Notes under the pieces: generated by a model | What the model was told of the DNA's origin: nothing | What the model saw: only the letters and a program-made list of their open reading frames with translations | Database searches by the model: none | NCBI GenBank assembly: GCA_030386875.1 | Contig: CM059574.1 | Location: 6,765,934-6,829,933, forward strand | Direction of reading: 5' to 3' | DNA length: 64,000 bases | From: Morinoia aosen | Taxonomy: Eukaryota > Arthropoda > Malacostraca > Amphipoda > Talitridae | Position numbers and translations under genes: made by a program | Shown: positions 27,786-29,542 of the stretch, piece by piece | How positions within the stretch are numbered: the first letter of the stretch is position 1 | How the letters are laid out: the number at the start of each line of letters is the position of its first letter

Positions 27786-27798
27786 AAAAAAGTTAATA
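27786..27798. repeat. 13-bp target-site duplication, left
   Basis: AAAAAAGTTAATA, repeated exactly at 29530-29542, brackets the Penelope-like inverted pair. It is A-rich, so some chance of coincidence remains. Confidence 0.65.
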
Positions 27799-27852
27799 AC
27801 GCCGTATAAAACATTTACTCGAATTAAAAACTGCAAGCAAAATAAAATTGAA

Positions 27853-27878
27853 CGTTTCGAGCGTTCGCTCATCTTCAG
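27853..27878 (-). other. Hammerhead-like core motif, left copy
   Basis: On the minus strand CTGAAGA, a GAGCG/CGCTC hairpin and GAAAC occur in order, identical to 29395-29420. See the right copy for interpretation. Confidence 0.45.
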
Positions 27879-28029
27879 CAATGACAAAAACAAATTTACC
27901 TGAAAAACATGAAATAAATTAGAAAGTTCATGAATTGCACAAACAAACAAAAAACTAAAAAACTAAAAAACTAAAAAAAAAAAAAAAAACTAAAAAACTA
28001 AAAAAAAAACTAAAAAACTAACCTTAAAA

Positions 28030-28863
28030 CTACCTGTTAACTATTGACAATGGAAAGGAACTAAGTTGGTTGTTTAAAATTGGCTTATTTTTTAAAATGA
28101 ATAGAGACTCTAAAATCCTTAAATCGGAGGCAAATTTTGATCTAGTGAGAATTTTAAAATTACTGATGTCAAATGGGCTATCACAATGCTCTGAATGATC
28201 CCTAATAGCTGAATGCGGAGGACTTGATAAAATATTTCCTGTGCGGTAACTCCTACCTCGATGCTCGGCCACCCTACAGCCTAGAGTACGTGACGTCAAG
28301 CCTACGTACTCAGATGCACATCGTGCACAACAAAATTTGTAAATTAGGGAGGCCTGCATCGCGGTAGGAAGAATGTCTTTGAAACGAAAAAATGAGCCTA
28401 TTTTGAAACTATTAACTAAAACCACCTTAAAGTTTATTCCCGGGAAGTATTTAACAAACAAATCTAAAATTTCTTTCTTCATTTTCTCCGACTGAGGTCC
28501 AAAATACGGAAACGAAACAAAACGAAAGTCCTCACAGATTGTTTCCAGAGAAGGCAGTTTGTTGAACTTTTTTTCCAAAAATTTACCAATATGAGATTCT
28601 ATAAGTCGAGTTGAAAAACCATTCTTACGGAAATATTCTTTTAAAAAAGTAAACTCATCATGTAGAAACTTATAAGTACTGCAAATATTGAACGCTCTAA
28701 AGATTAAAGTCCTGATAAAATTTATTTTGAAAATATATGGCGAGAAACTAAAGAAACTGGTTCCTAAGCCTGTAAAACACTTTTTCCTATACACAGAACA
28801 CTCGAACCCATTACCAGACCGATGAACCAGACAATCTAAGAAGGAAAGTTTGAGTGCCTCTTT
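28030..28863 (-). CDS. Penelope-like RT end plus GIY-YIG endonuclease, 5'-truncated frame
   Basis: An uninterrupted minus-strand frame of about 277 codons begins at the truncation/inversion junction near 28863 (no native start; GTG at 28794 is only the first alternative codon) and ends with TAG at 28030. The N-terminal part (LSFLDCLVHR, VYRKKCFTGLGTSFFSF) matches the reverse transcriptase thumb of Penelope-like elements. The C-terminal 131 residues form a GIY-YIG nuclease. Numbered within those 131: Tyr29, cysteines 32, 33 and 36, YVG at 40-42, Arg51, Glu54-His55, Asp76-His77, Glu106 and Asn118, which are the expected catalytic and zinc-ligand-like positions. The endonuclease would nick target DNA to prime reverse transcription. 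The RT palm and the 5' part are missing, so the copy is not autonomous. Confidence 0.85.
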   Translation of the reverse strand, partial: KEALKLSFLDCLVHRSGNGFECSVYRKKCFTGLGTSFFSFSPYIFKINFIRTLIFRAFNICSTYKFLHDEFTFLKEYFRKNGFSTRLIESHIGKFLEKKFNKLPSLETICEDFRFVSFPYFGPQSEKMKKEILDLFVKYFPGINFKVVLVNSFKIGSFFRFKDILPTAMQASLIYKFCCARCASEYVGLTSRTLGCRVAEHRGRSYRTGNILSSPPHSAIRDHSEHCDSPFDISNFKILTRSKFASDLRILESLFILKNKPILNNQLSSFPLSIVNR

Positions 28864-28865
28864 AA

Positions 28866-29273
28866 ATAAACTTTAAGGTGGTTTTAGTTAATAGTTTCAA
28901 AATAGGCTCATTTTTTCGTTTCAAAGACATTCTTCCTACCGCGATGCAGGCCTCCCTAATTTACAAATTTTGTTGTGCACGATGTGCATCTGAGTACGTA
29001 GGCTTGACGTCACGTACTCTAGGCTGTAGGGTGGCCGAGCATCGAGGTAGGAGTTACCGCACAGGAAATATTTTATCAAGTCCTCCGCATTCAGCTATTA
29101 GGGATCATTCAGAGCATTGTGATAGCCCATTTGACATCAGTAATTTTAAAATTCTCACTAGATCAAAATTTGCCTCCGATTTAAGGATTTTAGAGTCTCT
29201 ATTCATTTTAAAAAATAAGCCAATTTTAAACAACCAACTTAGTTCCTTTCCATTGTCAATAGTTAACAGGTAG
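28866..29273 (+). CDS. GIY-YIG endonuclease domain of the second Penelope-like copy
   Basis: The frame is open from the copy's truncation point and ends at 29273. Its residues are identical to the C-terminal part of the minus-strand copy, including the GIY-YIG tyrosines, the CC..C cluster, R51, H55, E106 and N118. Only a few residues of RT linker precede the nuclease. It is probably not translated as a useful protein, because it has no start codon or promoter of its own in view. Confidence 0.85.
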   Translation: MNFKVVLVNSFKIGSFFRFKDILPTAMQASLIYKFCCARCASEYVGLTSRTLGCRVAEHRGRSYRTGNILSSPPHSAIRDHSEHCDSPFDISNFKILTRSKFASDLRILESLFILKNKPILNNQLSSFPLSIVNR

Positions 29274-29394
29274 TTTTAAGGTTAGTTTTTTAGTTTTTTT
29301 AGTTTTTTAGTTTTTTAGTTTTTTGTTTGTTTGTGCAATTCATGAACTTTCTAATTTATTTCATGTTTTTCAGGTAAATTTGTTTTTGTCATTG

Positions 29395-29420
29395 CTGAAG
29401 ATGAGCGAACGCTCGAAACG
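29395..29420 (+). other. Hammerhead-ribozyme-like core in Penelope-like 3' region
   Basis: CTGAAGA is followed by T, a five-base stem GAGCG/CGCTC with an AA loop, then GAAACG. CTGANGA, a stem II hairpin and GAAA in this order form the conserved core of type I hammerhead ribozymes, which Penelope-like elements are known to carry. Two features argue against activity: an extra T between CTGAAGA and the stem, and the lack of a clear stem I. A possible stem III partner with a cleavage-type dinucleotide is GGCGTT at 29470-29475. Confidence 0.45.
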
Positions 29421-29529
29421 TTCAATTTTATTTTGCTTGCAGTTTTTAATTCGAGTAAATGTTTTATACGGCGTTTTTGGTTCTCTCTTTTTTACTTAAA
29501 ATCAGGAAACCTTCCGATAACTTTTTTGC

Positions 29530-29542
29530 AAAAAAGTTAATA
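29530..29542. repeat. 13-bp target-site duplication, right
   Basis: Exact copy of 27786-27798. Confidence 0.65.

What the first reader, a model, noticed from the sequence alone, without database searches (positions are those of the whole stretch)
27786..29542. Near-identical Penelope-like palindrome at the centre of the larger inverted repeat
Two head-to-head copies with identical 131-residue GIY-YIG domains, 426 bp of extra RT-thumb sequence on one side and a shared 13-bp flank suggest one insertion event that produced an inverted dimer. All GIY-YIG catalytic positions are intact, and the homology breaks at AATAAACTTT, giving the exact inversion junction. It is far younger than the arms around it.
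Basis: partly seen in the sequence, partly recalled or inferred. Interest (0 to 1): 0.7.

Follow-up and report, generated by a model that had tools for sequence, protein, structure and literature searches.

The report
Young head-to-head Penelope retroelement insertion
Two identical truncated pieces of what looks like a Penelope-type jumping gene sit back to back between a 13-letter duplicated target, most simply the product of one recent insertion; this arrangement is known for the family, but its unequal ends hint at how it is made.

Summary
Copy A (- strand, 28864..27799) and copy B (+ strand, from 28865) share 611 aligned bases without a mismatch, apart from one 30-nt length difference in a low-complexity repeat. 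The 426 nt at 28439-28864 belong to A only. A 13-nt direct repeat (27786-27798, 29530-29542) encloses the pair and marks one insertion. B alone carries 54 extra nt at its outer end. Each copy has a minimal hammerhead-like motif, absent from 200 shuffles. Inverted head-to-head pLTRs, a one-sided tail, target duplications and minimal hammerheads are published for Penelope-like elements, so this is a new member of a known kind. No protein profile confirmed the family, and the own-genome search did not complete in ten tries. The unequal outer ends disfavour simple self-priming, the published suggestion. They fit priming from both cut target strands, which one Penelope-like enzyme shows in vitro, then joining of two truncated cDNAs. 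A 22-bp palindrome on B's target boundary is unexplained and could reflect some fold-back copying.

The parts
27786..27798 (+). left copy of the 13-nt target site duplication AAAAAAGTTAATA
27799..28864 (-). copy A: 3' part of a Penelope-like element, 5'-truncated inside the RT region; outer end at the pLTR-like region without the extension seen in B (boundary ambiguous by 1 nt)
28030..28864 (-). copy A coding part: end of RT, thumb, linker and GIY-YIG-like endonuclease up to the stop codon
   Evidence: motifs read by eye from memory, no profile hit
28439..28864 (-). 426 nt present in copy A only (RT end and thumb)
27799..28029 (-). pseudo-LTR-like 3' region of copy A (231 nt)
   Evidence: pLTR identity inferred, no full-length copy seen
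27980..28009 (-). 30 nt of low-complexity repeat present in A, absent in B
27847..27882 (-). minimal type I hammerhead-like motif of copy A
28864..28865 (.). inversion junction between the two truncated 5' ends
28865..29475 (+). copy B: endonuclease region and pseudo-LTR-like region, identical to A apart from the 30-nt gap
28866..29273 (+). copy B open frame, 135 residues identical to the end of the A frame
29274..29475 (+). pseudo-LTR-like 3' region of copy B (202 nt)
29391..29426 (+). minimal type I hammerhead-like motif of copy B, with an ATG at 29401
29476..29517 (+). extension of B absent from A, read as a Penelope tail (42 nt)
   Evidence: the reading as tail follows PMC3846280 and PMC11167929
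29518..29529 (+). last 12 nt before the target duplication; 29518-29528 is the left half of a 22-bp perfect palindrome (29518-29539) whose right half lies mostly in the target duplication
29530..29542 (+). right copy of the 13-nt target site duplication

Best explanation
This is a single recent insertion of a Penelope-like retroelement. Shown by sequence: two identical 5'-truncated copies head to head, 3' ends outward, enclosed by one 13-nt target duplication; 54 extra nt at the outer end of B only; a minimal hammerhead-like motif in each copy. Inferred: the element enzyme made a staggered cut in AT-rich DNA (empty site AAAAAAGTTAATA^TTACATATATCC), leaving two 13-nt 3' overhangs. Both 3' ends primed reverse transcription, each at an internal start site just past the pLTR-ORF boundary: the left end at about +75 from the ATG in the hammerhead motif (no tail), the right end at about +117 to +129 (tail). 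Both cDNAs stopped early, one in the RT region (A), one in the linker before the endonuclease (B), and the two truncated ends were joined head to head.
For: One target duplication around the pair. 611 bases identical. The one-sided extension and the 30-nt length difference mean that B is not a simple copy of A. The inverted repeat ends at the element edges, and the flanks differ. Hammerhead-like motif in both copies, nowhere else in the window, none in 200 shuffles. [quoted passage not shown] its main start lies 111-118 nt into the ORF and its tail is the interval between two start sites. Here the copies end at +75 (A) and +129 (B) from the ATG, or +117 for B if the last 12 nt are not element sequence (arithmetic). 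The plus-strand cut reads A^TT; PAc favours ATT.
Against: No full-length copy was seen, so the extension is not proven to be element sequence, and microhomology at the junction cannot be judged. The ATG frame meets a stop inside the extension (29497-29499). No ATT spans the bottom-strand cut. The extension's hairpin is no stronger than shuffles, and the minimum-energy fold of the hammerhead region (29380-29480) is not a hammerhead and is no better than shuffles (z 0.20); Rfam finds nothing at E up to 1. The 10 nt TAACTTTTTT that a fold-back copy of the left flank would carry do occur 42 nt beyond the end of the shared part (29518-29527). The A. vaga authors prefer self-priming for such structures. 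Both-strand extension was shown in vitro for one element from a lizard, not for head-to-head products. No profile confirmed the protein family.
Confidence: 0.6

Rival explanations
1. Self-priming: one cDNA (A) was made from the left target end, its 3' end folded back and copied itself to give B, as suggested for Adineta vaga Penelope elements (there on an antisense template).
For: Published suggestion for head-to-head PLE copies (PMC3846280); explains the identity of the arms and why B is the shorter copy; the 22-bp palindrome at the B boundary, with an inverted piece of the target, may show fold-back copying.
Against: B has 42-54 nt that A lacks, and copying A to its end would give the inverted left flank right after the shared part, where the alignment instead stops. 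A and B differ by 30 nt in a repeat, though slippage could do that. No palindrome with arms of 10 nt or more lies at the inner junction; only TTTAAA is there.
Confidence: 0.2
2. Two separate insertions: one copy landed at the 5' end of an earlier copy.
For: Penelope-like elements form tandems and partial tandems, and PAc is thought to nick its own pLTR or other AT-rich DNA; a 4-nt AATA match could serve as a private duplication for A (sequence shown).
Against: A 13-nt duplication encloses the pair; no differences in 611 sites; the meeting point is exactly where both copies are truncated.
Confidence: 0.1
3. Assembly or amplification artefact (read fold-back).
For: Perfect inverted arms are a usual artefact signature; no reads were available.
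Against: Arms stop at the element ends, with different flanks, a one-sided extension, a 30-nt difference and a target duplication.
Confidence: 0.04
4. A DNA-level inverted duplication of an inserted copy (fold-back replication or palindrome formation around the older inverted repeat).
For: The locus already lies in the loop of an older inverted repeat.
Against: A DNA-level event would not be expected to respect the element's outer end on both sides or to produce the target duplication; no flank sequence was found inside the arms.
Confidence: 0.05

Closest known systems
Adineta vaga Penelope families Pen2a, Pen2, Pen5, Pen6 (PMC3846280, passages read)
   Same: Inverted pLTRs (193-218 bp in the passages), inverted pairs most often head to head, an optional 31-bp tail on one inverted pLTR, target duplication of 8-10 bp where present, 5' truncation in several copies.
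   Different: Here the inverted stretch reaches into the endonuclease and, on one side, RT, although longer inverted overlaps are reported for two Pen3 copies there; the target duplication is 13 nt; there is no long palindrome at the inner junction, but one at the outer B boundary.
Poseidon PAc of Anolis carolinensis (PMC11167929, main text section read)
   Same: Hammerhead overlapping the ATG, RT start and tail at similar offsets, AT-rich target.
   Different: PAc is described in tandem repeats; no head-to-head product is reported in the text read. Sequence relatedness to the window element was not tested.
Drosophila virilis Penelope inverted repeats in introns (PMC1431729, passages read)
   Same: Inverted Penelope pairs within 100 bp of each other, one predicted to form a hairpin.
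   Different: Fragments in introns; no target duplication or tail discussed in the passages read.
L1 twin priming (PMC2837659, abstract start in a search listing only)
   Same: Inverted, truncated inserts flanked by target duplications.
   Different: As recalled, twin priming inverts a 5' segment of one RNA; here both copies carry the same 3' end.

Membership tests
Endonuclease-containing Penelope-like elements | RT followed by a C-terminal GIY-YIG endonuclease in one frame | tested here: inconclusive
   Open frame 28030-28872 (-) shows KLSFLD, SVYRKK, YVG, R..EH, LES and LN motifs (assignment recalled).
Endonuclease-containing Penelope-like elements | Minimal type I hammerhead without helix III in the pLTR | tested here: met
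   One motif per copy, 0 in 200 mononucleotide shuffles of 56 kb. The descriptor was written after seeing the sequence and allows one extra base before stem II. Against: Rfam found nothing at E up to 1, and the minimum-energy fold of the region is not a hammerhead. Cleavage not tested.
Endonuclease-containing Penelope-like elements | Direct or inverted pLTRs, 5' truncation, variable target duplication | tested here: met
   against PMC3846280. That the repeated 3' region is a pLTR is inferred.
Endonuclease-containing Penelope-like elements | Optional tail of 30-40 nt on a pLTR | tested here: inconclusive
   B has 54 nt (42 if the last 12 are filler) that A lacks; not shown to be element sequence.
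Endonuclease-containing Penelope-like elements | Telomerase-like RT core and N-terminal domain | not testable with these tools
   Both copies are truncated; no full-length copy could be reached (genome search did not complete).
L1-type twin priming product | The inverted and direct parts are different segments of one RNA (recalled) | tested here: not met
   Both parts contain the same 3' end, 611 shared bases.
Fold-back DNA transposon | Terminal inverted repeats with no retroelement coding or polarity (recalled) | tested here: not met
   The arms contain the 3' end of a retroelement-like frame (read by eye) and hammerhead-like motifs.

The most novel reading that the evidence does not exclude
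The locus records two-sided target-primed reverse transcription: both 3' overhangs of one staggered cut primed separate cDNAs at the two alternative RT start sites of a Penelope-like RNA, which were then joined head to head. This would explain inverted pLTRs and one-sided tails across the family. The 22-bp palindrome at the B boundary would be either filler templated by the target overhang or a sign that the RNA tail pairs with the target.
Probability: 0.45. Interest if true: 0.55.

Novelty: new member of a known kind. Interest (0 to 1): 0.35.

Why it matters
How Penelope-like elements come to have inverted terminal repeats with a tail on only one of them is not settled in the papers read; the suggestion made there is self-priming, and later steps of PAc mobilisation are called yet to be validated. 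A young copy with unequal outer ends and a clean target duplication is a useful case for telling models apart. If transcribed, the locus would give an RNA hairpin of about 600 bp, a possible small-RNA source (inference; compare PMC1431729).

Tried and rejected
Profile searches of the frame and its parts: Pfam (2 proteins each; 3 pieces of the element among 7 proteins), PHROGs (one family of unknown function at E 0.1), NCBIfam (one hit at E 0.064 far under its cut-off), PDB (best E 0.58). None confirms or names the family. Relatives in viral contigs (19 and 24 pattern matches, none confirmed), genome contigs (61, none confirmed) and phages (none); these are not eukaryote collections. Hammerhead pattern in viral contigs and genome contigs: 0. 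Rfam at E up to 1: none; I give this little weight because PLE hammerheads are described as minimal. The hairpin of the extension is not better than shuffles, so it is not used as support. A further copy elsewhere in the window, by blastn with 27700-29600: none.

Considered and rejected: twin priming in the L1 sense, fold-back DNA transposon, read fold-back artefact, DNA-level inverted duplication (see rivals and membership test).

Papers: searches. In these listings, several of them capped at 12 to 20 rows, I noticed no paper that by title or abstract start proposes two-sided priming for head-to-head Penelope copies; I opened only seven papers (PMC11167929 main text; passages of PMC3846280, PMC12910113, PMC1431729, PMC6431247, PMC6155905, PMC7761336). 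Four ids tried were not held. The early papers on Penelope structure (2001-2006), seen only in reference lists, were not looked up.

Mend to the notebook: the first entry gives the hammerhead at 29398-29425; searches give 29395-29422 for the core.

Full report
What is there. Between 27786 and 29542 lie two copies of one sequence in opposite orientation. Copy A reads on the - strand from 28864 to 27799, copy B on the + strand from 28865. They share 611 bases with no mismatch and one 30-nt gap in a TTTTTTAG-type repeat (itself counts 613 matches and 1 mismatch because its alignment runs 3 columns past the element). A continues 426 nt further at its 5' end than B (28439-28864). The junction is 28864|28865 at AATAAACTTT. 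A blastn search found no further copy in the window.

One insertion. AAAAAAGTTAATA occurs directly outside A (27786-27798) and 54 nt beyond the shared part of B (29530-29542). In random pairs of window stretches a match of 13 nt or more this close to an edge occurred 2 times in 19,549, and anywhere in the flanks 2 times in 2,928. The enclosed pair is therefore best read as one event. The arms stop at these limits and the flanks differ, which speaks against a fold-back artefact of sequencing. No reads were available.

What it is. The A frame (28030-28872, -) contains motifs that I recognise, from memory, as the end of a Penelope RT with thumb and a GIY-YIG-type endonuclease (YKFCCARC, YVG, R..EH, LES, LN). 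The first glycine of GIY is not seen. The family therefore leans on a second mark: a minimal type I hammerhead-like motif (stem I AUUG/CAAU, CUGAAGA, stem II GAGC/GCUC with one extra U, GAAACGUU) in the 3' region of each copy, found nowhere else in the window and never in 200 mononucleotide shuffles of 56 kb. The descriptor was fitted after seeing the sequence. Against it, Rfam reports nothing, and the minimum-energy fold of the region is not a hammerhead. Reviews state that Penelope-like elements carry such minimal hammerheads, lacking helix III, and that they may cleave as dimers (passages). In the Anolis element PAc the ORF starts at stem II of the hammerhead, with C3 and G8 of the core before the start codon; here an ATG (29401) lies at about the same place.

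Architecture against the literature. In Adineta vaga, Penelope copies can have an inverted pLTR, an optional tail on one of the inverted pLTRs and a target duplication, and the inverted pairs are most often head to head (passages). In Drosophila virilis inverted Penelope pairs occur in introns (passages). The window locus fits this kind. Its differences are the long shared stretch reaching into the endonuclease (longer inverted overlaps are also reported for two A. vaga Pen3 copies), the 13-nt duplication, and the palindrome described below.

How it formed. The A. vaga authors suggest self-priming. Copying A by fold-back would give B an outer end equal to A's, followed by the inverted left flank. 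Instead B continues with 54 nt of which the first 42 have no counterpart at A's end, and A has 30 nt in a repeat that B lacks. Two separately primed cDNAs explain this more simply. [quoted passage not shown] Here A ends at +75 from the ATG and B at +129, or at +117 if the last 12 nt are not element sequence (arithmetic). The agreement is between different elements and may be luck. The joining of the two truncated cDNAs is inferred. Whether it used microhomology cannot be told without a full-length copy.

Unexplained. TAACTTTTTTGCAAAAAAGTTA (29518-29539) is a perfect 22-bp palindrome, the longest found in 7501-64000 among palindromes with a spacer of up to 4; arms of 11 or more without spacer came up 0.025 times per shuffle, 40 shuffles. 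Its right half lies in the target duplication, its left half in the last 12 nt of B. It may be filler copied from the target overhang, the RNA tail may resemble the target, or it may reflect fold-back copying, which would favour the rival model in part. The ATG frame has a stop inside the extension (29497-29499).

Age and setting. Zero differences in 611 sites bound the divergence at 0.5%. The insertion lies in the loop of an older inverted repeat (24296-27769 and 30959-33978; 2260 of 2750 aligned bases identical, gaps not counted), beside a decayed Tc1-like element (about 29546-30906). Leaving out both insertions, the loop is about 85 bp (arithmetic).

Confidence. One insertion of a Penelope-like element: about 0.9. 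The two-sided priming step is less certain; 0.6 is my figure for the whole account, and the bolder family-wide reading gets 0.45.

Limits. The own-genome search did not complete, so no other copy was compared. The host species is unknown.

Noticed in passing
window 29518-29539: 22-bp perfect palindrome exactly on the boundary between copy B and its target duplication.
   Followed up: partly
window 29546-30906: Decayed Tc1-like element with TIR-like ends (29547-29666 / 30905-30792) and a weak, below cut-off DDE_3 match (E 0.04), starting about 4 nt after the right target duplication.
   Followed up: partly
window 24296-27769 and 30959-33978: Older large inverted repeat, 82% identity over aligned bases, whose loop holds both the Tc1-like and the Penelope-like insertion.
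   Followed up: partly
window 1-6749: Tandem array of a 27-bp unit, 250 copies, 95% matches; four copies of nearly the same unit recur at 13756-13863, next to a CGACTC-rich repeat like the one at 6774-7009.
   Followed up: no
window 16365-17291: 25-bp tandem repeat, 37 copies, open in three frames.
   Followed up: no
window 8157-8882 (+): Open frame that looks by eye like the end of a non-LTR retrotransposon RT; no Pfam hit.
   Followed up: no
window 11275-11892 and 36598-38304: Several diverged (about 75-86% identical) direct and inverted copies of one repeat family.
   Followed up: no
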